A stretch of DNA of 64,000 nt from Limnospira fusiformis SAG 85.79 (GTDB lineage: Bacteria > Cyanobacteriota > Cyanobacteriia > Cyanobacteriales > Microcoleaceae), in the NCBI RefSeq assembly GCF_012516315.1, contig NZ_CP051185.1:1013459-1077458 (forward strand), written 5' to 3'. Of the stretch, positions 1 to 13,396 are shown piece after piece; the first letter of the stretch is position 1, and every line of letters starts with the position of its first letter. The position numbers and the translations under genes were made by a program. The notes under the pieces are model-generated. The model did no database searches. It was not told the origin of the DNA and saw only the letters and a list, made by a program, of their open reading frames with translations.

Positions 1-1590
1 CCCGTGGATATCATACAAGCCAAATGCGTTGGCGTGTTGAAACTGACCGACGGGGGTGGTTTGTTCGCGGTAGGCTCCCTTGGGTCCTGAGCTATAGGTG
101 TAGTCGCCACGGTAGTTGGCGAGGTCGGTGGTCAGGGTATCACCGACATGAAAGGGGCTAGTGGTTCCGGCGCGAGCTGCATATTCCCACTCGGCTTCAC
201 TGGGTAATCGGTAGGGTTTGCTGATTACTTTTGAGAGGCGATCGCACCACTCCATTACATCATACCATGAAACCGATTCAACGGGAAGATTTAATCCTTT
301 AAATCTTGGGGGGTCTAGGCTCAGGTCCCGTTGAAGTTTGGGGAAACTAGCCACTTGTTGCCATTGTGCTTGGGTAACCGGATATTTCCCCATTAGGAAG
401 GGTTTAATCGTGACTTGGTGTTGGGGTTCTTCTTCGCCATGATAGCGACTCCATCGCTTTTCGGATGCAGGTGAACCCATAATAAAGGTTCCCCCCGGAA
501 TTAGCACCATCTCCAGGGTTACACCGTTTCCCAGGTCTTCGATAATACATTCAGCCTGACCGGGACGACGGTTAATTTCTCGACCCATTGAATTGACCGT
601 AACGATATCAAATTCAAACTTCTGGGTTACCGGTTTGCCAGTTGTATTGGGAGTCTGTTTAACAGTCTCTGGGATGACGGTTTGAGGACTTGTTGGGTTG
701 GGCGATTTCCCATAATATCGCCGTAAATCTTCCCAAACTTCCGCTACAGATTGATAGCGTTTGTTAAACACTGTCTCAACCAAACGGTCTAAGATTTTGC
801 CTAGTTTCTCACTCAACTGATTGTCATTTAAATGCTCACGCCACACCCATTGTAATTCTAAGGGGTCATATAAATTCGACGGACTCACTTCGGTTAGCAG
901 GTATAAACAAGTCACCCCTAAACTATATAAATCACTCCCATATTGAGGTTTTCCCATAGCCTGTTCCGGGGCGCAATATTCCGCCGAACCGATAACCGTT
1001 CCGGTGACGCTCATAGATGTGCGCCGCACCTGTTTAGATGCTCCAAAATCCACTAGGACTAACTTGTTATCACTGGCTCGTCTAATGATGTTTTCCGGTT
1101 TAATATCCCGGTGAATCACTTGATTTTGGTGGACGAAATCCAAAACTGGCAATAAATCCTCTAGCAGCGAAATGATTTGATTTTCGCTAAAAGCGCCTTG
1201 ATTATCTAGCTCCTGTTGTAGGGTTTCCCCTTCGATAAATTCCTGAATTAAATATTGACGGTTATCAGCCGTAAAATAAGCCAACAGTTCCGGGATTTGG
1301 GAATGTTTGCCGAGGAGTTCTAAACGTTGGGCTTCTTGGTCGAATAATTGGGCGGCTTTTTCTAGGGTAGCGGTTCCTTGCGCCTGGGGAAGGAATTGCT
1401 TAATCACGCAGGGAGGTTTAGAAGGTTTGAAGTCATCCACTGCCAGAAATGTGCGTCCGAACCCGCCTTGTCCGAGGATGCTTTTAGCATAGTAGCGTTC
1501 TGCCAGTCGGAGTTTACTGCCACATTTTTGGCAAAACTGGGAACCTTCGGGGTTGCTGTGGAGGCAGTCCGGGTTGAGACACTGGCTCAT
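1..1590 (-). CDS. 4-Cys Ser/Thr kinase fused to FGE-sulfatase domain, copy 1 (3' end outside window)
   Basis: The reading frame is open from the ATG at 1590 to the window edge (530 codons); I translated it by hand. It starts with a zinc-ribbon-like segment (Cys4, Cys9, Cys20, Cys23). A Hanks-type kinase domain follows, with glycine loop GQGGFGRTFL, VIKQ lysine, HRDIKPEN catalytic loop, DFG and an APEQ motif. After a Pro/Thr-rich linker comes an FGE-sulfatase/C-type-lectin-like domain (GGTFIMG, YPVTQAQW, RLPSEAEWEYAARAG). The frame reaches only FGLYDIHG, so the variable C-terminus lies left of the window. Family knowledge: such kinases phosphorylate Ser/Thr on unknown targets. The FGE-fold domain probably binds a ligand rather than modifying sulfatases. 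The upstream leader repeat carries the ribosome site AGGAGG-like core. Confidence 0.9.
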   Translation of the reverse strand, partial: MSQCLNPDCLHSNPEGSQFCQKCGSKLRLAERYYAKSILGQGGFGRTFLAVDDFKPSKPPCVIKQFLPQAQGTATLEKAAQLFDQEAQRLELLGKHSQIPELLAYFTADNRQYLIQEFIEGETLQQELDNQGAFSENQIISLLEDLLPVLDFVHQNQVIHRDIKPENIIRRASDNKLVLVDFGASKQVRRTSMSVTGTVIGSAEYCAPEQAMGKPQYGSDLYSLGVTCLYLLTEVSPSNLYDPLELQWVWREHLNDNQLSEKLGKILDRLVETVFNKRYQSVAEVWEDLRRYYGKSPNPTSPQTVIPETVKQTPNTTGKPVTQKFEFDIVTVNSMGREINRRPGQAECIIEDLGNGVTLEMVLIPGGTFIMGSPASEKRWSRYHGEEEPQHQVTIKPFLMGKYPVTQAQWQQVASFPKLQRDLSLDPPRFKGLNLPVESVSWYDVMEWCDRLSKVISKPYRLPSEAEWEYAARAGTTSPFHVGDTLTTDLANYRGDYTYSSGPKGAYREQTTPVGQFQHANAFGLYDIHG

Positions 1591-2031: not shown

Positions 2032-3885
2032 CTAAAGCGCTACCCGAAAACCGCTGTTGCGGCCGAAGCTGTCCGGGTAGTCCATGACGCGGTTGGCACA
2101 ACGGCAGCTCACAGGAAAGTTTAGCCACGAACCGCCGCGCAGCACCCTCATGTCTTTTGTCCCTTTTTCCAAAAAATCGACTAAATGTTCAATAATGTTT
2201 TCATAACGATTATCGTTACCATAATCCCACACTCGCCCGTCCGAGGGAGCGCCACCATAGCCTTCGTGCCAGGGGTCAGCGCACCATTCCCAAATATTCC
2301 CGTGGATATCATACAAGCCAAAGGCGTTGGCGTGTTGAAACTGACCGACGGGGGTGGTTTTTTTGCGGTAGGCTCCCCTCGGTCCTGAGCTATAGCTGTA
2401 GCCGCCATCGTAGTTGGCGAGGTCCGTCGTCAGGGTATCACCGACATGAAAGGGGCTAGTGGTTCCAGCGCGGGCTGCATATTCCCACTCGGCTTCACTG
2501 GGCAATCGGTAGGGTTTGCCAATTCTTTTCGAGAGGCGCGCACACCATTCCACCACATCATACCATGAAACCGATTCAACGGGAAGATTTAATCCGGCAA
2601 ATTTGGAGGGGTTATAGTTGAGGTCCCGTTGGAGTTTGGGGAAACTAGCCACTTGTTGCCATTGTGCTTGGGTAACCGGATATTTCCCCATGAGGAAGGG
2701 TTTAATCGTGACTCGGTGTTGGGGTCTTTCAGCGTATGAACTTCCAGCTTCACCACTCGGCGCACCCATAATAAAGGTTCCCCCCGGAATTTTTACCATC
2801 TCCAGAGTCACCCCATTTCCCAGGTCTTCGATAATACATTCAGCCTGACCGGTACGGCGGTTAATTTCTCGACCCATTGAATTGACCGTAACGATATCAA
2901 ATTCAAACTTCTGGGTTACCGGTTTGCCAGTTGTATTGGGAGTCTGTTTAACAGTCTCTGGGATGACGGGTTGAGGATTTGTGGGGTTGGTCTGTTTCCC
3001 ATAATATCGCTGTAAATCTGCCCACACTTCCGCTACAGATTGATAGCGTTTTTTAAAGACTGTCTCAACCAAGCGGTCTAAGATTTTGCCTAGTTTATCA
3101 CTCACCTGATTGTCATTGAAATACTCATAGTCACGCCACACCCATTCGGCTTCTAAGGGGTCATATAAATCTGACGGACTCACTTCGGTTAGCAGATATA
3201 AACAAGTCACCCCTAAACTATATAAATCACTCCCATATTGAGGTTTTCCCATAGCCTGTTCCGGGGCCCAATATTCCGCCGAACCGATAACCGTTCCCGT
3301 CACGCTAAGAGATGTGCGTCGCACCTGTTTAGATGCTCCAAAATCCACTATAACTAACTTATTATCACTGGCTCGTCTAATGATGTTGTCCGGTTTAATA
3401 TCCCGGTGAATCACTTGATTTTGGTGGACGAAATCCAAAACTGGCAATAAATCCTTGAGCAGCGAAATGATTTGATTTTCCGTAAAAGCGCCTTGATTAT
3501 CTAACTCCTGTTGTAGGGTTTCCCCTTCGATAAATTCCTGAATTAAATATTGACGGTTATCAGCGGTAAAATAAGCCAACAGTTCCGGGATTTGGGAATG
3601 TTTGCCGAGGAGTTCTAAACGTTGGGCTTCTTGGTCGAATAATTGGGCGGCTTTTTCTAGGGTAGCGGTTCCTTGCGCCTGGGGAAGGAATTGTTTAATC
3701 ACACAGGGAGGTTTAGAAGGTTTGAAGTCATCCACTGCCAGAAATGTGCGTCCGAACCCACCTTGTCCGAGGATGCTTTTAGCATAGTAGCGTTCTACCA
3801 GTCGGAGTTTACTGCCACATTTTTGGCAAAACTGGGAACCGTCGGGGTTGATGTGGAGGCAGTCTGGGTTGAGACACTGGCTCAT
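2032..3885 (-). CDS. 4-Cys Ser/Thr kinase with FGE-sulfatase/C-type-lectin domain, copy 2 (putative DGR target)
   Basis: Complete 617-residue protein. Residues 4-24 form a CxNPxC...FCxxCG zinc ribbon. Residues ~33-300 are a Hanks-type kinase with GQGGFGRTFL, VIKQ, HRDIKPDN, DFGASK and APEQ motifs. The linker ~300-345 is Pro/Thr-rich and ~350-617 is an FGE-sulfatase (PF03781-like) domain with GGTFIMG, RLPSEAEWEYAARAG, GNIWEWC and a terminal GFRVA block. The last ~35 residues differ strongly from the sister copies, while the kinase is almost identical. The first of the paired active-site cysteines of genuine formylglycine-generating enzymes is not seen, so a ligand-recognition role is more likely (inference). 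The ATG at 3885 follows a good ribosome site in the conserved leader. It is probably a sensor kinase with a diversified binding face. Confidence 0.93.
   Translation of the reverse strand: MSQCLNPDCLHINPDGSQFCQKCGSKLRLVERYYAKSILGQGGFGRTFLAVDDFKPSKPPCVIKQFLPQAQGTATLEKAAQLFDQEAQRLELLGKHSQIPELLAYFTADNRQYLIQEFIEGETLQQELDNQGAFTENQIISLLKDLLPVLDFVHQNQVIHRDIKPDNIIRRASDNKLVIVDFGASKQVRRTSLSVTGTVIGSAEYWAPEQAMGKPQYGSDLYSLGVTCLYLLTEVSPSDLYDPLEAEWVWRDYEYFNDNQVSDKLGKILDRLVETVFKKRYQSVAEVWADLQRYYGKQTNPTNPQPVIPETVKQTPNTTGKPVTQKFEFDIVTVNSMGREINRRTGQAECIIEDLGNGVTLEMVKIPGGTFIMGAPSGEAGSSYAERPQHRVTIKPFLMGKYPVTQAQWQQVASFPKLQRDLNYNPSKFAGLNLPVESVSWYDVVEWCARLSKRIGKPYRLPSEAEWEYAARAGTTSPFHVGDTLTTDLANYDGGYSYSSGPRGAYRKKTTPVGQFQHANAFGLYDIHGNIWEWCADPWHEGYGGAPSDGRVWDYGNDNRYENIIEHLVDFLEKGTKDMRVLRGGSWLNFPVSCRCANRVMDYPDSFGRNSGFRVAL
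2036..2140 (-). other. Putative DGR variable region (VR) of kinase copy 2
   Basis: It runs from the invariant GGSW codons to the invariant GFRVA codons. Codon by codon against copies 3, 5 and 6, about 18 codons vary, nearly always at positions 1 and 2, with third position C kept. The blocks TGC CGT TGT GCC, CGC, CCG and GGT TTT CGG GTA are invariant. This is the pattern expected if AAC-rich template codons were copied with adenine-specific errors. Confidence 0.85.
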
Positions 3886-4175
3886 AATCAGGAGGGTTAT
3901 TGATACCTGATTCTACATTACCATAAATGCCGAAAATTAACCCGCTTTTTCACAGAAACCTGATTTATCACGGCTGGGGAAGTTGGGTTTCGCTGCGCTT
4001 CACCCAACCTACATCGTTGTTGTTTACACAAGGGCAATTTAAATTTAACATTTCTTTACACACAAATCCATATTTATGGTGTAAAATTGGGGAAATATAA
4101 AAAAAGCTCGCTGCGATCGCTCAAAAGGGTAAATGGCTAACAGGGTAAAGGGCAAAACCGCAAAAGCGCTAAGAG
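3886..4175. repeat. Leader unit and intergenic spacer between kinase copies 2 and 3
   Basis: Positions 3886-4015 are one copy of the kinase leader and palindrome (GTTGGGT...ACCCAAC). From 4016 to 4175 the DNA is AT-rich, carries one HIP1 octamer near 4113, and shows no gene that I can support. Confidence 0.7.
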
Positions 4176-5909
4176 CTAAGAGTCGGGGGGGGCACAGGCT
4201 ACCCGAAAACCGTAGTTGAGGTTGAGGATGTCCGGGCCGACCCAGTCGCGGAAGGCACAACGGCAGCTCTCTGGAAGGTCGTCCCACGAACCGCCGCGCA
4301 GCACTCGGTCGTCTTTGCTTTCCAAAAACTTGACTAAATATTCAATAGGGTTTTGATAACGATTATCGTTCCCAACATCCCACACACGACCATCCGAAGG
4401 CGCACCATTGTAGCTGTCGTGCCAGGGGTCAGCGCACCATTCCCAAACATTTCCGTGGATATCATACAAGCCAAATGCGTTGGCGTGTTGAAACTGACCG
4501 ACGGGGGTGGTTTGTTCGCGGTAGGCTCCCTTGGGTCCTGAGCTATAGGTGTAGTTGCCATCGTAGTTGGCGAGGTCTGTCGTCAGGGTATCACCGACAT
4601 GAAAGGGGCTAGTTGTTCCGGCGCGGGCTGCATATTCCCACTCGGCTTCACTGGGCAATCGGTAGGGTTTGCCGATTCTTTTCGAGAGGCGGGCGCACCA
4701 CTCGATTACATCATACCATGAAACTTTTTCAACCGGAAGATTTAATCCTTTAAATCTTGAGGGGTCTGGGTTCAGGTCTCGTTGGAGTTTGGGGAAACTA
4801 GCCACTTGTCGCCATTGTGCTTGGGTAACCGGATATTTCCCCATTAGGAAGGGTTTAATCGTGACTCGGTGTTGGGGTCTTTCAGCATTAGAACTTCCAG
4901 CTTCACCACTCGGCGCACCCATAATAAAGGTTCCCCCCGGAATTAGCACCATCTCCAGAGTCACACCATTTCCCAGGTCTTCGATAATACATTCAGCCTG
5001 ACCGGGACGGCGGTTAATTTCTTGTCCCTTTGAATTGACGGTAACGATGTCAAAGGAAAAAGAAGTCGTTTTTGGTCGGTAAAGGGGGGTGGGTTTCGGC
5101 GGTTCCAACAGCTTTAACCACTCCTCCATCGACTGAGGGCGCTGGGTTTTATTTAACGCCATCCCCGCCATAATCGCATCATTAATAGCATCGCTCACCG
5201 ATGCCAAATCCTTGGGCGGCACCAACTCTTCCCGGTCTACCTTGCGGGAAAAACAGTCCCTCGGCAACTGCTTCGTTACGGCATAATAGAGAGATGCTGC
5301 CAGAGTGTAAATATCGACCGTGGGGGAGCGATCGCCTTTAATTAACTGTTCGTAGGGTGCAAAAGCCTTATTGCCAAAAATCTTGGAACTGGTGACACTG
5401 GGGACGACATTTCCAGCGATGCCAAAATCAATCAATACCGGCTGACGGTTACCTCGCAACATGATATTAACCGGGGTGGCATCCCGGTGAACAATACCAG
5501 CGCGATGCACCTGTGCCAAAGCCTGAGCCACCGGACAAATTAACTCCAGGGCGGTCGCTTCCGAAAGGGGGCCTTGTTCCTGCACCAGAGTATAGAGGTT
5601 TTTGCCCTCGATAAATTCCATTACCAGACAATGGGAGTCGGATTCTTCAAATAAGTCCTTGACGCGGACGATGTGGGGGTTGGGGTCCCTCTCCAGTTGG
5701 GCTAAAATTTGGGCTTCCCGGATGAAGCGTTGGACGTATTTGGCATAGTCGGGGTCATGTCGCAAAAAGGCATTGGGGGTTTTGATCACCACGGGGGCAT
5801 TGAAGCCCCGATGCAGGGCTTTGTAGGTAATGCCGAACCCACCCTGTCCGAGGACAGTTTCGATGGTGAATTTGCCGTTTTGGAGTGAGTGTCCGTTTTG
5901 CCAGTACAT
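4176..5909 (-). CDS. Ser/Thr kinase with FGE-sulfatase domain, copy 3, without zinc ribbon (putative DGR target)
   Basis: 577 residues from the ATG at 5909. A TTG 30 bp further upstream is open, but the ATG aligns with the MLWQNG start of the next kinase. This copy lacks the N-terminal zinc ribbon and has a different kinase domain: GQGGFGITY, VIKTPN lysine, DFGIAG. The catalytic loop reads HRDATPVN, so the usual lysine after HRD-x is threonine, which may lower activity. The C-terminal ~270 residues are the same FGE-fold domain as in the neighbours (GGTFIMG, RLPSEAEWEYAARAG, GNVWEWC) and end in a variable region followed by GFRVACAPPDS. A recent exchange of the FGE module between different kinase types is likely, because the FGE part is almost identical at DNA level to copies 2 and 5 while the kinase is not. 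Confidence 0.92.
   Translation of the reverse strand: MYWQNGHSLQNGKFTIETVLGQGGFGITYKALHRGFNAPVVIKTPNAFLRHDPDYAKYVQRFIREAQILAQLERDPNPHIVRVKDLFEESDSHCLVMEFIEGKNLYTLVQEQGPLSEATALELICPVAQALAQVHRAGIVHRDATPVNIMLRGNRQPVLIDFGIAGNVVPSVTSSKIFGNKAFAPYEQLIKGDRSPTVDIYTLAASLYYAVTKQLPRDCFSRKVDREELVPPKDLASVSDAINDAIMAGMALNKTQRPQSMEEWLKLLEPPKPTPLYRPKTTSFSFDIVTVNSKGQEINRRPGQAECIIEDLGNGVTLEMVLIPGGTFIMGAPSGEAGSSNAERPQHRVTIKPFLMGKYPVTQAQWRQVASFPKLQRDLNPDPSRFKGLNLPVEKVSWYDVIEWCARLSKRIGKPYRLPSEAEWEYAARAGTTSPFHVGDTLTTDLANYDGNYTYSSGPKGAYREQTTPVGQFQHANAFGLYDIHGNVWEWCADPWHDSYNGAPSDGRVWDVGNDNRYQNPIEYLVKFLESKDDRVLRGGSWDDLPESCRCAFRDWVGPDILNLNYGFRVACAPPDS
4200..4300 (-). other. Putative DGR variable region of kinase copy 3
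   Basis: The invariant GGSW block and GFRV block enclose codons that read DDLPES, F, DWVG and ILNLNY, where the sister copies have other residues. Differences sit at codon positions 1 and 2, and third positions stay C or T. The constant CRCA and P anchor positions are kept. Confidence 0.85.
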
Positions 5910-5959
5910 TGTCCGGGTGTCAGTCGGTGAGGATGTCAATATTGTACACCCACCCAGGG

Positions 5960-6925
5960 CTATTTATTTAAAAATAGGGCGATTATGGTTGCGATCGCAC
6001 CGAGAATGCCGGCAACAGTAGCAGCCAATTGAAGGGCGATCGGCAGACTATCCCATTGGGGAATTGGCGACCAGCGCCCGATTCCCAATTCCCGCAGAAA
6101 TTCCGGTACACTCTGGGTGCGATCGCCCGGAATTAAAGCCATGGCATGAACGATCGCCTGATTAACCTTTTGGCTAATCTTGGGATTGTGCAAACGGGGG
6201 GGAGTCAAATGCACATCGGACTTGGTATCATGGCGATCTAAGGCACTTTCAGGTTTTTTTCCGGTCAGCAGCACATACAGGGTCGCCGCCAGGCTGTAAA
6301 CGTCCGTCCAGGGTCCTTTGGGTTCCAGGTGGGAATACAATTCGAAGGGTGCAAAGCCATCAACGGTAATTTGTTGGGTGAGGGGATGATCGAAAGACCT
6401 CGCCAAGCCAAAATCAATTAAAATCGCCTCTTGTTTTCCGGCGCGAATCATAATATTTCCGGGTTTAAGATCTCGATGCAAAAGACCCCGTTGGTGGACG
6501 GAAATCAAAGCGGAACCAATTTGTTGAATATAGCCCAGGGCAATTTTTTCGGGAAGTTGAGGTTCTCCCCGCTGACCGAGACTGACCCCATCAATATAGT
6601 CCATGACGATACACGGATAGCGAGTATTGGCAAACCATCCCTCCCGCACCGCTTCCTCAAAAATTTCTCGCACTTTGACAATATGAGGATGTTGGCATTG
6701 GGAGAGTTTTAGGGCTTCATCATAAAATTTGGTCGCATATTTTTCCCGTTCCGAGGGCTTGAGATCTTTTAACATGGAAGCGTCGGGATTCAGGGTTTTA
6801 ATGGCAACATAGCCATTCGTCCGCACTTCCTTGGCGAGATAGGTGACGGAAAATCGCCCCTGTCCCAAAATGCGATCGACCATATAGTTCCCGTTGTTGA
6901 GTTTCTGTCCGTTTTGCCACAACAT
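5960..6925 (-). CDS. Membrane-anchored Ser/Thr protein kinase
   Basis: 321 residues from the ATG at 6925 (MLWQNGQKLNNGNY). The frame stays open to 7045, but that extension is only a translation of the palindromic intergenic repeat, so I reject it. The kinase core is complete: GQGRFSVTYLA, VAIKTLN lysine, HRDLKPGN catalytic loop, DFGLARS and a DVYSLAATLY segment. There is no FGE domain. A single C-terminal hydrophobic segment of about 22 residues near the end (ALQLAATVAGILGAIATI) is followed by LFLNK, which predicts a tail-anchored membrane kinase. It sits between copies 3 and 5 of the array on the same strand, only ~50 bp upstream of copy 3, and may be co-transcribed with it. Substrates are unknown. 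Confidence 0.9.
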   Translation of the reverse strand: MLWQNGQKLNNGNYMVDRILGQGRFSVTYLAKEVRTNGYVAIKTLNPDASMLKDLKPSEREKYATKFYDEALKLSQCQHPHIVKVREIFEEAVREGWFANTRYPCIVMDYIDGVSLGQRGEPQLPEKIALGYIQQIGSALISVHQRGLLHRDLKPGNIMIRAGKQEAILIDFGLARSFDHPLTQQITVDGFAPFELYSHLEPKGPWTDVYSLAATLYVLLTGKKPESALDRHDTKSDVHLTPPRLHNPKISQKVNQAIVHAMALIPGDRTQSVPEFLRELGIGRWSPIPQWDSLPIALQLAATVAGILGAIATIIALFLNK

Positions 6926-7049
6926 GATGGAATCGATAAAATATGGGCGTATTTTACCAAAATCCGCTGCTGCTTGGGTTGCCGAAACAGAAACCCGGTG
7001 GCTCACGGCTGGCTGGGAAGTTGGGTGAAGCGCAGCGAAACCCAACCTA

Positions 7050-8858
7050 CTAAAGCGCTACCCGAAAACCGTTGTTGTAGAAGAGGAAGTCCGGGTCAGC
7101 CCCGTAGCGGTAGGCACAACGGCAGTTATCTGGATAGTCGTACCACGAACCGCCGCGCAGCACCCTTCTTTCTGTTTTTCCCAAAGAGTTGATAGCTATT
7201 CGTGAAGAGTTGATAGCTATTCGTAATTGATAACGATTATCGTTACCAACATCCCACACACGACCATCCGAAGGCGCACCATTGTAGCTGTCGTGCCAGG
7301 GGTCAGCGCACCATTCCCAAACGTTCCCGTGGATATCATACAAGCCAAAGGCGTTGGCGTGTTGAAACTGACCGACGGGGGTGGTTTGTTCGCGGTAGGC
7401 TCCCTTGGGTCCTGAGCTATAGGTGTGGTTGCCATCGTAGTTGGCGAGGTCCGTCGTCAGGGTATCACCGACATGAAAGGGGCTAGTAGTTCCGGCGCGG
7501 GCTGCATATTCCCACTCCGCTTCACTGGGTAATCGGTAGGGTTTGCCAATTCTTTTCGAGAGGCGATCGCACCACTCCATTACATCATACCAAAAAACTT
7601 TTTCAACCGGAAGATTTAATCCTTTAAAATATGAGGGGTCTAGGCTCAAGTCCCGTTGGAGTTTGGGGAAACTAGCCACTTGTCGCCATTGTGCTTGGGT
7701 AACCGGATATTTTCCCATGAGGAAGGGTTTAATCGTGACTCGGTGTTGGGGTCTTTCAGCGTATGAACTTCCAGCTTCACCACTCGGCGCACCCATGGTA
7801 AAGGTTCCCCCCGGAATTAGCACCATCTCCAGAGTCACCCCATTTCCCAGGTCTTCGATAATACATTCAGCCTGACCGCGACGGCGGTTAATTTCTCTGC
7901 CCTTTGAATTGACCGTAACGATATCAAATTCAAACTTCTGGGTTACCGGTTTGCCAGTTGTATTGTTGGTCGGTTTCCCATAATATCGCTGTAAATCTGC
8001 CCATACTTCGGCTACAGATTGATAGCGTTTTTTAAATACTGTCTCAACCAAACGCTCTAAGATTTCGCCTAATTTATCACTCACCTGATTGCCATTTAAA
8101 TGCTCACGCCACACCCATTGTGATTCTAAGGGGTCATATAAATATGACGGACTCACTTGGGTTAGCAGGTATAAACAAGTCACCCCTAAACTATATAAAT
8201 CACTCCCATATTGAGGTTTTCCCATAGCCTGTTCCGGGGCGCAATATTCCGCCGAACCGATAACCGTTCCCGCGACGCTCATAGATGTGCGCTGCACCTG
8301 TTTAGATGCTCCAAAATCCACTATGACTAACTTGTTATCACTGGCGCGTCTAATGATGTTTTCCGGTTTAATATCCCGGTGAATTACTTTATGTTTGTGT
8401 ACAAAATACAAAACTGGCAATAAATCCTTGAGCAGCGAAATGATTTGATTTTCTGTAAAAGCGCCTTGATTGTCTAACTCCTGTTGTAGGGTGTCTCCTT
8501 CGATAAATTCCTGAATTAAATATTGACGGTTATCAGCCGTAAAATAAGCCAACAGTTCCGGGATTTGGGAATGTTTGCCGAGAAGTTCTAAACGTTGGGC
8601 TTCTTGGTCGAATAATTGGGCGGCTTTTTCTAGGGTAGCGGTTCCTTGCGCCTGGGGAAGGAATTGCTTAATCACGCAGGGAGGTTTAGAAGGTTTGAAG
8701 TCATCCACTGCCAGAAATGTGCGTCCGAACCCACCTTGTCCGAGGATGCTTTTAGCATAGTAGCGTTCTACCAGTCGGAGTTTACTGCCACATTTTTGGC
8801 AGAAATTACAACCTTCGGGGTTGATGTGGAGGCAGTCTGGGTTCAGACATTGGCTCAT
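7050..8858 (-). CDS. 4-Cys Ser/Thr kinase with FGE-sulfatase domain, copy 5 (putative DGR target)
   Basis: 602 residues with the same order as copy 2: zinc ribbon with four Cys (residues 4-24), Hanks-type kinase (GQGGFGRTFL, HRDIKPEN, DFGASK), a short linker, then an FGE-fold domain ending GFRVAL. The linker is shorter than in copies 2 and 6. Just before the variable region it carries a seven-residue tandem duplication (RIAINSS then RIAINSL), encoded by a 21-bp repeat at about 7185-7226. The start is the ATG in the conserved leader at 8858. The high identity to copies 2 and 6 outside the variable region suggests gene conversion or recent duplication. Confidence 0.93.
   Translation of the reverse strand: MSQCLNPDCLHINPEGCNFCQKCGSKLRLVERYYAKSILGQGGFGRTFLAVDDFKPSKPPCVIKQFLPQAQGTATLEKAAQLFDQEAQRLELLGKHSQIPELLAYFTADNRQYLIQEFIEGDTLQQELDNQGAFTENQIISLLKDLLPVLYFVHKHKVIHRDIKPENIIRRASDNKLVIVDFGASKQVQRTSMSVAGTVIGSAEYCAPEQAMGKPQYGSDLYSLGVTCLYLLTQVSPSYLYDPLESQWVWREHLNGNQVSDKLGEILERLVETVFKKRYQSVAEVWADLQRYYGKPTNNTTGKPVTQKFEFDIVTVNSKGREINRRRGQAECIIEDLGNGVTLEMVLIPGGTFTMGAPSGEAGSSYAERPQHRVTIKPFLMGKYPVTQAQWRQVASFPKLQRDLSLDPSYFKGLNLPVEKVFWYDVMEWCDRLSKRIGKPYRLPSEAEWEYAARAGTTSPFHVGDTLTTDLANYDGNHTYSSGPKGAYREQTTPVGQFQHANAFGLYDIHGNVWEWCADPWHDSYNGAPSDGRVWDVGNDNRYQLRIAINSSRIAINSLGKTERRVLRGGSWYDYPDNCRCAYRYGADPDFLFYNNGFRVAL
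7056..7160 (-). other. Putative DGR variable region of kinase copy 5
   Basis: Between GGSW and GFRV this copy reads YDYPDN, Y, YGAD and FLFYNN at the variable sites. Two codons near the 3' end are AAC, matching the inferred unmutated template state, and CRCA and CRY anchors are conserved. The substitution pattern relative to copies 2, 3 and 6 is confined almost wholly to sites where an adenine is present in one copy or can be inferred for the template. Confidence 0.85.
7185..7226 (-). repeat. 21-bp tandem duplication in kinase copy 5
   Basis: Two adjacent near-identical 21-bp units inside the FGE-fold domain, in frame, give two seven-residue repeats just upstream of the RVLRGGSW block. The other copies have a different short insert here. 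Confidence 0.8.
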
Positions 8859-9466
8859 AATCAGGATGGTTATTGATACCTGATTCTACATTACCATAAA
8901 TGCCGAAAATTAACCCGCTGTTTCACAGACACCTGATTTATCACGGCTGGGGAAGTTGGGTTGCGCTGCGCTTCACCCAACCTACTAAAGCTGTGGATGC
9001 AGTCTGGGTTCAGACATTGGCTCATAATCAGGAGGGTTATTGATACCTGATTCTACATTACCATAAATGCCCAAAATTAACCCGCTTTTTCACAGACACC
9101 TGATTTATCACGGCTGGGGAAGTTGGGTTACGCTGCGCTTCACCCAACCTACTAAAGCGCTGGGTTGAGACACTGGCTCATAATCAGGAGGGTTATTGAT
9201 ACCTGATTCTACATTACCATAAATGCCCAAAATTAACCCGCTTTTTCACAGAAACCTGATTTATCACGGCTGGGGAAGTTGGGTTACGCTGCGCTTCACC
9301 CAACCTACTAAAGCGCTGGGTTGAGACACTGGCTCATAATCAGGAGGGTTATTGATACCTGATTCTACATTACCATAAATGCCCAAAATTAACCCGCTTT
9401 TTCACAGAAACCCGGTGGCTCACGGCTGGCTGGGAAGTTGGGTTACGCTGCGCTTCACCCAACCTA
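8859..9466 (-). repeat. Tandem leader repeats between kinase copies 5 and 6, with three orphan start codons
   Basis: Four head-to-tail leader units of about 155-157 bp. Orphan start codons, each behind the conserved ribosome site, lie at 9025, 9181 and 9336. The unit beginning at 9025 has a different deletion junction (after codon ~12) from those at 9181 and 9336, which shows independent deletion events. Each unit ends with the palindrome GTTGGGT...ACCCAACCTAC. Confidence 0.85.
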
Positions 9467-11413
9467 CTAAAGCGCACAGGCTACCCGAAAACCGTTGTAG
9501 TTTTTGAGGGAGCCCGGGTCGAACCTGCCGCGGTTGGCACAACGGCAGTAGCCAGGAACGTTGAACCACGAACCGCCACGCAGCACTCTTCTGTCTGTTT
9601 TTCCCAAAAAGTTGACTAAATGTTCAACAAGGTTTTCATAACGATTATTGTTACCATAATCCCACACTCCTCCGTCCGAGGGAGCGCCACCATAGCCTTC
9701 GCGCCAGGGGTCAGCGCACCACTCCCAAACATTCCCGTGGATATCATACAAGCCAAAGGCGTTGGCGTTTTGAAACTGACCGACGGGGTTGGTTTGTCTG
9801 CGGTAGGCTCCCTTGGGTCCTGAGCTATAGCTGTAGTTGCCATCGTAGTTGGCGAGGTCTGTCGTCAGGGTATCACCGACATGAAAGGGGCTAGTAGTTC
9901 CGGCGCGAGCTGCATATTCCCACTCCGCTTCACTCGGTAATCGGTAGGGTTTGCCAATTCTTTTCGAGAGGCGGGCGCACCACTCCATTACATCATACCA
10001 TGAAACCGATTCAACGGGACGATTTAATCCTTTAAATCTTGAGGGGTCTAGGCTCAGGCCTCGTTGGAGTTTGGGGAAACTAGCCACTTGTCGCCATTGT
10101 TCTTGGGTAACCGGATATTTCCCCATGAGGAAGGGTTTAATCGTGACTCGGTGTTGGGGTCTTTCAACATCAGAACTTCCAGTTTCACCACTCGGCACAC
10201 CCATGGTAAAGGTTCCCCCCGGAATTAGCACCATCTCCAGAATCAAACCATTTCCCAGGTCTTCGATAATACATTCAGCCTGACCGGGACGGCGGTTAAT
10301 TTCTCGACCCATTGAATTGACCGTAACGATGTCAAATTTAAACTTCTGGGGTACCGCTGGGGGAGTTGTATTGGGAGTCTGTTTAACAGTCTCGCGGTTA
10401 ATTTCTCGACCCATTGAATTGACCGTAACGATGTCAAATTTAAACTTCTGGGGTACCGCTGGGGGAGTTGTATTGGGAGTTTGTTTAACAGTCTCTTGGA
10501 TGACGGGTTGAGGATTTGTTGGGTTGGTCTGTTTCCCATAATATCGCCGTAAATGTGCCCAAACTTCCGCTACAGATTTATAGCGTTTTTTAAAGACTGT
10601 CTCAACCAAACGGTCTAAGATTTCGCCTAATTTATCACTCACATGATTGCCATTTAAATGCTCCCGCCACACCCATTGTGCTTCTAAGGGGTCATATAAA
10701 TCTGACGGACTGGCTTGGGTTAGCAGGTATAAACAAGTCACCCCTAAACTATATAAATCACTCCCATATTGAGGTTTTCCCATAGCCTGTTCCGGGGCGC
10801 AATATGCCGCCGAACCGATAACGGTTCCGGTGACGCTCATAGATGTGCTATGCACCTGTTTAGCCGCCCCAAAATCCACTAGGACTAACTTGTTATCACT
10901 GGCTCGTCTAATGATGTTTTCCGGTTTAATATCCCGGTGAATTACTTTATGTTTGTGTACAAAATACAAAACTGGCAATAAATCCTTGAGCAGGGAACTG
11001 ATTTTATTTTCCGTAAAAGCGCCTTTATCTAGCTCCTGTTCTAGGGTTTCCCCTTCGATAAATTCCTGAATTAAATATTGACGGTTATCAGCCGTAAAAT
11101 AAGCCAACAGTTCCGGGATTTGGGAATGTTTGCCGAGGATTTCTAAACGTTGGGCTTCTTGGTCGAATAATTGGGCGGCTTTTTCTAGGGTAGCGGTTCC
11201 TTGCGCCTGGGGAAGGAATTGCTTAATCACGCAGGGAGGTTTAGAAGGTTTGAAGTCATCCACTGCCAGAAATGTGCGTCCGAACCCGCCTTGTCCGAGG
11301 ATGCTTTTAGCATAGTAGCGTTCTACCAGTCGGAGTTTACTACCACATTTTTGGCAGAAATTACAACCTTCGGGGTTGATGTGGAGGCAGTCTGGGTTCA
11401 GACATTGGCTCAT
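9467..11413 (-). CDS. 4-Cys Ser/Thr kinase with FGE-sulfatase domain, copy 6 (putative DGR target), duplicated linker
   Basis: 648 residues, the longest copy. Order: zinc ribbon (residues 4-24), Hanks-type kinase (GQGGFGRTFL, HRDIKPEN, DFGAAK), Pro/Thr-rich linker, and FGE-fold domain ending GFRVACAL. The extra length comes from an exact tandem duplication of 34 residues in the linker and start of the FGE module (from ETVKQTPNTT to GREINR twice), a 102-bp DNA repeat. The start is the conserved leader ATG at 11413. As in the other copies, the C-terminal ~35 codons are hypervariable while upstream parts are conserved. It is probably a Ser/Thr kinase with a ligand-binding FGE-fold face. Confidence 0.93.
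   Translation of the reverse strand: MSQCLNPDCLHINPEGCNFCQKCGSKLRLVERYYAKSILGQGGFGRTFLAVDDFKPSKPPCVIKQFLPQAQGTATLEKAAQLFDQEAQRLEILGKHSQIPELLAYFTADNRQYLIQEFIEGETLEQELDKGAFTENKISSLLKDLLPVLYFVHKHKVIHRDIKPENIIRRASDNKLVLVDFGAAKQVHSTSMSVTGTVIGSAAYCAPEQAMGKPQYGSDLYSLGVTCLYLLTQASPSDLYDPLEAQWVWREHLNGNHVSDKLGEILDRLVETVFKKRYKSVAEVWAHLRRYYGKQTNPTNPQPVIQETVKQTPNTTPPAVPQKFKFDIVTVNSMGREINRETVKQTPNTTPPAVPQKFKFDIVTVNSMGREINRRPGQAECIIEDLGNGLILEMVLIPGGTFTMGVPSGETGSSDVERPQHRVTIKPFLMGKYPVTQEQWRQVASFPKLQRGLSLDPSRFKGLNRPVESVSWYDVMEWCARLSKRIGKPYRLPSEAEWEYAARAGTTSPFHVGDTLTTDLANYDGNYSYSSGPKGAYRRQTNPVGQFQNANAFGLYDIHGNVWEWCADPWREGYGGAPSDGGVWDYGNNNRYENLVEHLVNFLGKTDRRVLRGGSWFNVPGYCRCANRGRFDPGSLKNYNGFRVACAL
9480..9582 (-). 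other. Putative DGR variable region of kinase copy 6
   Basis: The variable sites read FNVPGY, N, GRFD and SLKNYN between invariant GGSW and GFRV. The codons CRCA and CNR-type anchors are as in the other copies. Third codon positions remain C at almost every variable codon. Confidence 0.85.
10291..10494 (-). repeat. 102-bp tandem duplication inside kinase copy 6
   Basis: Two adjacent, essentially identical 102-bp units that keep the frame. They encode the end of the linker and the first beta strands of the FGE module twice. No other copy has it, so it is recent. Confidence 0.85.
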
Positions 11414-11642: not shown

Positions 11643-12961
11643 TCACAGAAACCCGGTTGATAACGGCTGGCTGGGAAGTTGGGTTTCGCTGCGCTTCACC
11701 CAACCTACTAAAGCTACTAAAGCGCTTTCCCAAAGTTTGACTAAATTGTCAACATATATATCCTGACTATCCCACACCGTACCATCCGAGGGCGCACCAG
11801 CGTAGCCTTCGTGCCAGGGGTCAGCGCACCATTCCCAAACATTCCCGTGGATATCATACAAGCCAAAGGCGTTGGCGTGTTGAAACTGACCGACGGGGGT
11901 GGTTTTTTTGCGGTAGGCTCCCCTCGGTCCTGAGCTATAGGTGTAGCCGCCATCGTAGTTGGCGAGGTCCGTCGTCAGGGTATCACCGACATGAAAGGGG
12001 CTAGTGGTTCCGGCGCGGGCTACATATTCCCACTCGGCTTCACTGGGCAATCGGTAGGGTTTGCCAATTCTTTTCGAGAGGCGCGCACACCATTCCACCA
12101 CATCATACCATGAAACCGATTCAACGGGAAGATTTAATCCGGCAAATTTGGAGGGGTTATAGTTGAGGTCCCGTTGGAGTTTGGGGAAACTAGCCACTTG
12201 TCGCCATTGTTCTTGGGTAACCGGATATTTCCCCATGAGGAAGGGTTTAATCGTGACTCGGTGTTGGGGTCTTTCAACATCAGAACTTCCTGTTTCACCA
12301 CTCGGCACACCCATGGTAAAGGTTCCCCCCGGAATTAGCACCATCTCCAGAGTCACACTATTTCCCAGGTCTTCGATAATACATTCAGCCTGACCGGGAC
12401 GACGGTTAATTTCTCGACCCATTGAATTGACCGTAACGATATCAAATTCAAACTTCTGGGTTACCGGTTTGCCAGTTGTATTGGGAGTCTGTTTAACAGT
12501 CTCTGGGATGACGGTTTGAGGACTTGTTGGGTTGGGCGATTTCCCATAATATCGCCGTAAATCTTCCCAAACTTCCGCTACAGATTTATAGCGTTTTTTA
12601 AAGACTGTCTCAACCAAACGGTCTAAGATTTCGCCTAATTTATCACTCACATGATTGCCATTTAAATGCTCCCGCCACACCCATTCGGCTTCTAAGGGGT
12701 CATATAAATCTGACGGACTGGCTTGGGTTAGCAGGTATAAACAAGTCACCCCTAAACTATATAAATCACTCCCATATTGAGGTTTTCCCATAGCCTGTTC
12801 CGGGGCGCAATATGCCGCCGAACCGATAACCGTTCCCGTCACGCTCATAGATGTGCGCTGCACCTGTTTAGATGCTCCAAAATCCACTAGGACTAACTTG
12901 TTATCACTGGCTCGTCTAATGATGTTTTCCGGTTTAATATCCCGGTGAATCACTTTATGTT
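11643..12961 (-). pseudogene. Remnant of kinase-FGE gene, copy 7 (both ends lost)
   Basis: The kinase part begins only at KVIHRDIKPEN. The zinc ribbon and glycine-rich/ATP-binding N-lobe are missing because an ISKra4-type element abuts at 12962. At the other end the FGE domain is cut after the WEWCADPW block and a short tail. The RVLRGGSW-to-GFRV variable region is absent, and the frame runs into the intergenic palindrome (GWVKRSETQ). DNA identity to copies 2 and 6 is very high, so the loss is recent. The open frame formally continues to 12974 inside the IS end. It is not expected to make an active kinase. Confidence 0.88.
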
Positions 12962-13396
12962 GGGTGCATCTCAATTGGGAGATAAGTATAATTACTCAGG
13001 GCAAAAATCTACTCTTACCCTGATTAAGCAGCTAACGCGCCATTTAGGTAGGCACAGCGACGCCTCAACACCTTCGGCACATTCTCCTTTCGCCATTGTG
13101 CCCCCGGCAACTTCACCCTCATCCCAATTTGTTTCACCAACGACTCCACCCGACCCGAACCAATCGATTGCCCCGCTTCCTGCCCAGCCTGGTAGTCTAT
13201 AATCCTAGTCTGGTGATAGCAGGGTTAGCTTCGCTGTAGAGAATGGCCGCAATCGCGTCAAGGTGTTGCTGGAGTTGAGCTGGTTTCTGAGAATCCATGA
13301 GTAGAGGGAGGGTGAGTGGTGCTTCGCTCATTATGTAGGGCTGTGGGTGAAGGTTGCACTAAGTACAATTACTCATTTCCTAACTGAGATGCACCC
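12962..13396 (-). mobile_element. Internally deleted ISKra4-family insertion sequence
   Basis: The ends are perfect 12-bp inverted repeats GGGTGCATCTCA (12962-12973) and TGAGATGCACCC (13385-13396), with imperfect extension to ~20 bp. Inside, on the minus strand, are an N-terminal transposase piece (start 13331, MSEAPLTLPLLMDSQK) and a C-terminal piece ending at 13024 with the motifs GSGRVES, KQIGMRVK, GAQWR and RCAYLNG, typical of ISKra4-family transposases. The two pieces are joined out of frame, so at least ~300 codons were lost. It cannot transpose alone. It separates the kinase array from the intron region and truncates genes on both sides. Confidence 0.82.

What the first reader, a model, noticed from the sequence alone, without database searches (positions are those of the whole stretch)
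2036..9582. Remote diversity-generating-retroelement target array: four kinase-FGE genes with adenine-type hypervariable tails
Codon alignment of the four complete C-termini (2036-2140, 4200-4300, 7056-7160, 9480-9582) shows ~18 variable codons. Almost all differ at positions 1 and 2 only; third positions are nearly always C. Invariant blocks (GGSW, TGC CGT TGT GCC, CCG, GGT TTT CGG GTA) interrupt them. At most variable sites one copy keeps the AAC-type codon expected in a template, and the others show substitution to any base. Genes are otherwise nearly identical. This is the mutagenic-homing signature. Seen: pattern. Known: FGE/C-type-lectin folds and kinase fusions are DGR targets in filamentous cyanobacteria. 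Inferred: the RT and template repeat are elsewhere. A multi-copy array fed by one template would be a family of diversified sensor kinases.
Basis: partly seen in the sequence, partly recalled or inferred. Interest (0 to 1): 0.93.

Follow-up and report, generated by a model that had tools for sequence, protein, structure and literature searches.

The report
Spirulina receptor array without its mutator
A spirulina-type cyanobacterium carries a tandem family of kinase genes whose tails differ mainly at the sites a gene-rewriting retroelement would mutate, yet searches found no such retroelement in its chromosome, so this sensor repertoire was likely written by a machine that the strain has since lost.

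Summary
The four window genes belong to a nine-gene tandem block (eight with the hypervariable tail); four more genes lie 1.7 Mb away: 12 tails in one 6.42-Mb single-contig Limnospira-type (spirulina) genome. Aligned without gaps to the template repeat of a diversity-generating retroelement (DGR) in a same-family genome, all 26 template adenines vary among the eight array tails, against 14 of 70 other positions (p=1e-13). A second species of the genus also lacks a DGR RT, though a close one, named Limnospira, is catalogued on 13 contigs. Eight of 11 distinct tails recur unchanged in other records; yet one unnamed record differs from the window's third gene at 8 of 24 tail residues and 0 of 230 adjoining ones. 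Best reading: DGR-written kinase receptors orphaned by loss of a patchily distributed DGR. FGE-kinase DGR targets are known; a 12-gene orphan set is a new variant.

The parts
1..1590 (-). kinase-FGE gene, 5' part; its variable tail lies just left of the window (genome C1:1013207-1013302, tail YGNPESCRCAYRYRSDPDNLYYNV)
2032..3885 (-). kinase-FGE target gene, 617 aa
   Evidence: Pkinase, FGE-sulfatase
2041..2136 (-). variable region (GGSW..GFRV block; 24-codon variable tail inside)
4176..5939 (-). kinase-FGE target gene, 587 aa, with a different kinase domain from its neighbours but the same FGE module
4200..4295 (-). variable region
5960..7045 (-). stand-alone serine/threonine kinase gene between two array genes, no FGE module matched
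7050..8858 (-). kinase-FGE target gene, 602 aa; FGE module modelled (residues 305-602)
7059..7154 (-). variable region; a close unnamed protein record (P0029, longest contig 8,532 bp) differs here at 8 of 24 residues and at 0 of the 230 residues before it
9467..11413 (-). kinase-FGE target gene, 648 aa
9482..9577 (-). variable region
11643..12974 (-). truncated kinase-FGE copy that lacks the first part of the kinase and the variable tail; the same tail-less end occurs in protein records P0012 and P0042

Best explanation
This is a tandem family of serine/threonine-kinase genes with an FGE (C-type-lectin-like) module whose C-terminal tails differ mainly at template-adenine positions, and they were likely rewritten by a DGR (an RT that copies a template with random changes at A, the copy then replacing the gene tail) that searches did not find in this genome and that was likely lost. 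Shown: the adenine-centred pattern; homologous DGRs (target, Avd, RT, template) in same-family genomes; no RT, bAvd or template match in this chromosome; a close DGR RT protein named Limnospira; eight of the 11 distinct tails unchanged in other protein records. Inferred: each kinase is controlled or directed by its lectin-like module binding a ligand; the DGR once diversified all copies in trans; after its loss the receptors are inherited as a mostly fixed repertoire, changed by duplication, recombination, or entry of alleles from RT-bearing relatives.
Against: Loss versus never-had is not shown: I found no empty site or RT remnant. A plasmid could be missing from the assembly. Fourteen of 70 non-A template columns also vary, and 5 of the 40 variable columns in the eight copies contain no A, so ordinary mutation or a different template is mixed in. 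Stability was seen only in protein records (cluster representatives, most of them without a name, taken as other strains from their identity and contig length), not in DNA. Two duplicate copies with the same tail differ at 0 of 72 tail and 20 of 780 upstream bases, which fits a still tail but does not exclude equal rates (p=0.40) and may reflect gene conversion. P0029 shows that a tail was rewritten, or recombined, recently somewhere. In one search only 34 of 47 first-look candidates of this genome were scored. No bench evidence for any step.
Confidence: 0.8

Rival explanations
1. The DGR is still active in this strain, but its RT and template sit on a plasmid or other DNA missing from the assembly, and rewrite the array in trans.
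For: Trans-acting DGRs are in print (PMC10907252, section 8 read). A close DGR RT exists in Limnospira; DGR-type RTs occur on cyanobacterial plasmids (6 of the 9 plasmid records matched at 1e-60 are cyanobacterial).
Against: The longest contig bearing the Limnospira RT is 6,228,153 bp, that is chromosome-sized. The genome scores 99.94% complete in one contig. Eight of 11 distinct tails recur unchanged in other records, unlike what frequent rewriting would leave.
Confidence: 0.12
2. No retroelement was ever involved: tandem copies diverged by diversifying selection on a binding surface plus gene conversion.
For: Paralogous receptors can diversify at contact residues (general knowledge); mosaics exist (P0011 shares the 3' part of its tail, 20 of 24 residues in all, with the copy at 1006926).
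Against: Selection does not predict that substitutions track the adenines of another genome's template (26 of 26 vs 14 of 70), nor 17 of 72 tail changes beside 4 of 780 upstream changes, nor that 33 of 40 variable columns sit at codon positions 1 and 2 with a mostly unchanged third C.
Confidence: 0.03
3. Another RT of this genome (the RT-Cas1 or one of the many group II intron RTs) does the rewriting from a template of unknown form.
For: The genome holds 57 RT matches, among them an RT-Cas1.
Against: The inferred template finds, below E=1, only the 12 target tails and one 64-nt FGE-tail fragment. In all 44 RT loci the ORFs that match a reference RT match the group II intron RT or RT-Cas1 reference better than a DGR RT. 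I know of no such activity (recalled, not searched).
Confidence: 0.02

Closest known systems
Cyanobacterial DGRs with serine/threonine kinase-CLec targets and remote variable proteins (Vallota-Eastman et al. 2020, PMC7517822; abstract, sections 6 and 7 and search passages read)
   Same: Kinase plus C-terminal lectin-like module, tail variable at template adenines, several paralogues per genome; one Nostoc PCC 7120 paralogue (all3226) with remnant TR-VR homology is described there as having no RT gene or pseudogene nearby.
   Different: Here no RT, bAvd or template was found in the whole chromosome; 12 targets, eight of them in one tandem block; the RT is patchy within the genus. Arthrospira and Limnospira do not occur in that paper's main text (supplements not readable).
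Trans-acting and disrupted DGR loci of Thiohalocapsa PB-PSB1 (PMC10907252; section 8 and search passages read)
   Same: Targets away from an RT; some loci disrupted in the reference genome while other cells keep the RT.
   Different: There the genome holds other DGRs that are diversified in nature; here none was found in the held genome.
TvpA, Treponema denticola variable protein 1 (2y3c)
   Different: The solved chain (294 residues) is no kinase fusion; host differs.
Bordetella phage BPP-1 DGR (NC_005357: brt, TR, avd, mtd)
   Same: Reference set of parts: target with variable region, Avd, template, RT.
   Different: Complete cassette on a phage; tail-protein target.

Membership tests
DGR variable region (target side) | Substitutions concentrated at positions that are adenine in the template | tested here: met
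   Against a relative's template: 26 of 26 A columns vs 14 of 70 others. The strain's own template is not available, so strict confinement to its adenines could not be tested; the 14 may include columns where the two templates differ
DGR variable region (target side) | Variable region at the 3' end of a gene for a C-type-lectin/FGE-fold protein | tested here: met
   (2y3c, 5vf4 and 1yu4, all DGR targets, among the matches)
Complete DGR cassette in this genome | DGR-clade reverse transcriptase | tested here: not met
   controls rang
Complete DGR cassette in this genome | Template repeat matching the variable regions at non-adenine positions | tested here: not met
   below E=1 only the 12 target tails and one 64-nt FGE-tail fragment
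Complete DGR cassette in this genome | Accessory protein Avd | tested here: not met
   (PF22296; rings in 32 of 59 genomes at E<=0.001, 14 over the cut-off); other accessory types not tested
Remote variable protein of a DGR (PMC7517822 definition) | >=50% nucleotide identity of the variable region to the TR or DGR target of the same organism | tested here: not met
   no TR found in the same genome; identity to the TR of another genome was not taken as a substitute
DGR (mechanism) | RT-dependent mutagenic retrohoming | not testable with these tools
   needs RT-plus and RT-minus cultures

The most novel reading that the evidence does not exclude
In Limnospira the mutator is a shared, patchy property of the population: a few RT-bearing strains rewrite kinase-receptor tails, and RT-less strains such as this one hold the finished receptors as a fixed, tandem, recombining repertoire, refreshed by taking up rewritten alleles from RT-bearing relatives, so that targeted hypermutation and receptor use are divided between strains.
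Probability: 0.2. Interest if true: 0.8.

Novelty: new variant of a known kind. Interest (0 to 1): 0.6.

Why it matters
Natural RT-plus and RT-minus strains with related target arrays would give a clean test of what DGR mutation is for: whether diversity must be made continuously or can be made once and kept. The twelve related sensors, with known variable residues and an otherwise shared scaffold, also make the unknown ligand and output of cyanobacterial kinase-lectin proteins approachable in a cultured, edible organism.

Tried and rejected
Template near the array: rejected; no extra core match. An early scan seemed to show only eight tails, because its list was cut; not used. RT fragments at 2706619-2707249 beside the second cluster looked like a broken DGR RT but are a broken group II intron RT (82.6-90.2% identical to the reference, locus L035). 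Viral relatives of the Limnospira RT are at most 41% identical over the best segment, 31 loci. A hairpin downstream of the tails (GGTTGGGT..ACCCAAC type) was considered as the cruciform that DGR homing can need (recalled); it follows most copies but with varied sequence and distance, and such repeats also lie elsewhere in locus L073, so I make no claim. The VIA list does not exclude families that it does not show. The PADLOC match of the kinase part to PD-T4-6 models (411 bits) covers a broad kinase family and was not taken as proof of a defence role. FGE catalytic cysteines were not analysed. Literature, full-text searches: 'diversity-generating retroelement' with Arthrospira (0 papers), with Limnospira, with Trichodesmium and kinase (two read in part, one, PMC12691664, seen in search passages only), with orphan and variable region, with cyanobacteria, remote and lost; and Arthrospira with reverse transcriptase, kinase, genome and repeat (24 papers, 12 listed). 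No listed title or abstract start describes this array; supplements were not readable.
Full report
What is there. The window lies at 1,013,459-1,077,458 of a single-contig, 6,423,694-bp genome, 99.94% complete. Close protein records that bear a name are Limnospira or Arthrospira, so this is a spirulina-type cyanobacterium. The genes at 2032-3885, 4176-5939, 7050-8858 and 9467-11413 (minus strand) join a Hanks-type kinase to an FGE-sulfatase module (one search scanned the first, second and fourth; the third).

Extent. Fifteen FGE matches exist in the genome: nine in the block that includes the window (eight with tails, and the truncated 11643-12974), four near 2.71 Mb, one separate gene at 4.70 Mb (426-aa frame) and one weak match below the cut-off. 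Twelve carry the tail. One tail (copy at 2712935) differs from the others also in the core block; two copies (1006926 and 2708372) share one tail, so 11 tails are distinct. In a second species of the genus, G001, six such genes sit at the same two places: a block of five beside photolyase-NUDIX-folK, one gene beside an integrase. No tail is shared between the two genomes.

Adenine signature. Same-family genomes carry DGRs with target, Avd, RT and a template repeat after the RT. The template of G022 aligns without gaps to the Limnospira tails. Its 26 A columns all vary among the eight array tails, against 14 of 70 other columns (p=1.1e-13). Five other relatives' templates give p from 2e-8 to 2e-12. 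With all 12 tails the contrast is 26 of 26 vs 22 of 70 (p=1.3e-10), weaker because the odd copy adds columns. In G001 it is 23 of 26 vs 4 of 70 (p=4.5e-15). Variable columns defined from G000 alone hold 26 of the 27 variable columns of G001.

Machinery. PF00078 finds 57 RT places in the genome. I took DNA around all of them, 44 loci (L001-L015, L019-L037, L039-L048; one place held twice). In each locus every ORF of 60 or more codons that matches any of four reference RTs at 1e-5 matches the group II intron RT or the RT-Cas1 best, not a DGR RT. BPP-1 RT scores 61.6 bits and the Limnospira DGR RT 78.1 bits against the same Pfam model, so a DGR RT should have been seen. The BPP-1 RT itself finds at best 26.3 bits here. 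A G022 DGR RT query finds 791 and 572 bits in two of four same-family genomes given as controls (G003 and G012 gave about 48 and 51 bits), but at most 55 bits (27% identity, the RT-Cas1) in G000 and 57.5 bits in G001. P0127 as query: 14 of 61 family genomes match at 1e-40, G000 and G001 do not (34 of their first-look candidates scored each). bAvd: none in G000 and G001; 32 of 59 genomes at E<=0.001, 14 over the cut-off. Template: the exact core TGCCGTTGTGCCNNCCGC occurs 11 times in G000, all in target tails; an inferred template finds the 12 tails, one 64-nt FGE-tail fragment at 5451919 (E=1e-6), and then ten matches at E of 1 or more.

The RT in the genus. Protein P0127 (352 aa) is named RNA-directed DNA polymerase [Limnospira], counted on 13 contigs, the longest 6,228,153 bp; it is 76% identical to the G022 DGR RT and has the LTSQ segment seen in most of the DGR RTs. 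That this SQ pair marks DGR RTs is recalled. Records P0018 and P0022, whose longest contig has the same length, carry tails identical to two of this genome's. So the RT appears patchy in the genus. Loss here is the simpler reading, but no scar was found, and no DNA of an RT-bearing strain was available to me.

Stability and change. Eight of the 11 distinct tails recur letter for letter in records whose longest contig is not this genome's (P0002/P0003, P0006, P0008, P0009, P0014-P0016, P0017, P0018, P0020-P0023 with P0025, P0026 and P0081); one more matches only P0010, this genome's own, and two had no counterpart. The rest of those proteins differs at 1 to 45 residues, gaps aside. But P0029 equals the window gene 7050-8858 over the 230 residues before the tail and over the first 12 tail residues, then differs at 8 of the last 12. 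This is what one recent rewriting event with its crossover inside the tail would leave (the 3' polarity of homing is recalled); a recombination with an unseen donor would also do. P0036 has the same new tail behind a different upstream region; P0011 shares only the 3' part of a tail (20 of 24 residues in all), which points to recombination. In G001 two copies differ at 17 of 72 tail bases and 4 of 780 upstream bases (p=4e-16), while another pair shares its tail with 7 of 780 upstream differences.

Context. FGE-module relatives occur in 58 of 60 family genomes searched but the DGR RT in 14 of 61, so the module is far commoner than the mutator in this family; whether the other RT-less genomes keep DGR-type tails was not examined beyond single loci.

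Verdict. A real, adenine-type DGR target array, larger than the window, orphaned in this chromosome. Confidence 0.8; the open doubts are a missing plasmid and loss versus never-had.

Noticed in passing
G000 C1:3761986-3762693 (locus L019 1334-3364): RT-Cas1 fusion protein (Cas_Cas1 294.7 bits, RVT_1 102.1 bits), next to a second ORF on the other strand that resembles its Cas1 part.
   Followed up: partly
G000, loci L001-L015 and L020-L048: Very many group II intron RT copies, intact and broken; G001 gave 117 matches to a DGR RT query, none stronger than 57.5 bits.
   Followed up: partly
G000 C1:5451919-5451982 and G001 C1:6514125-6514188: A 64-nt piece similar to the FGE tail start occurs in both species outside the arrays and is not recognised as an FGE domain in G000; possibly a relic target.
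   Followed up: no
window:7050-8855:- (kinase part): Kinase region matches PADLOC PD-T4-6 models strongly (411 bits over 297 residues), a lead towards a defence role.
   Followed up: no
L017:2908-3867: Tandem repeat of about 162 bp immediately downstream of the array, open in both reading directions; similar units at L017:7899-8264.
   Followed up: no
L074:15257-16698: Regular short direct repeats that look like a CRISPR array near the single kinase-FGE gene of G001.
   Followed up: no
L251 (G012 C1:3367311-3367466 region) and L241 (G003 C57:238475-238783 region): Two family genomes with an Avd match (a fragment in G012, over the cut-off in G003), a DGR-type tail nearby, but no close DGR RT match: possible further cases of decayed DGRs.
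   Followed up: no
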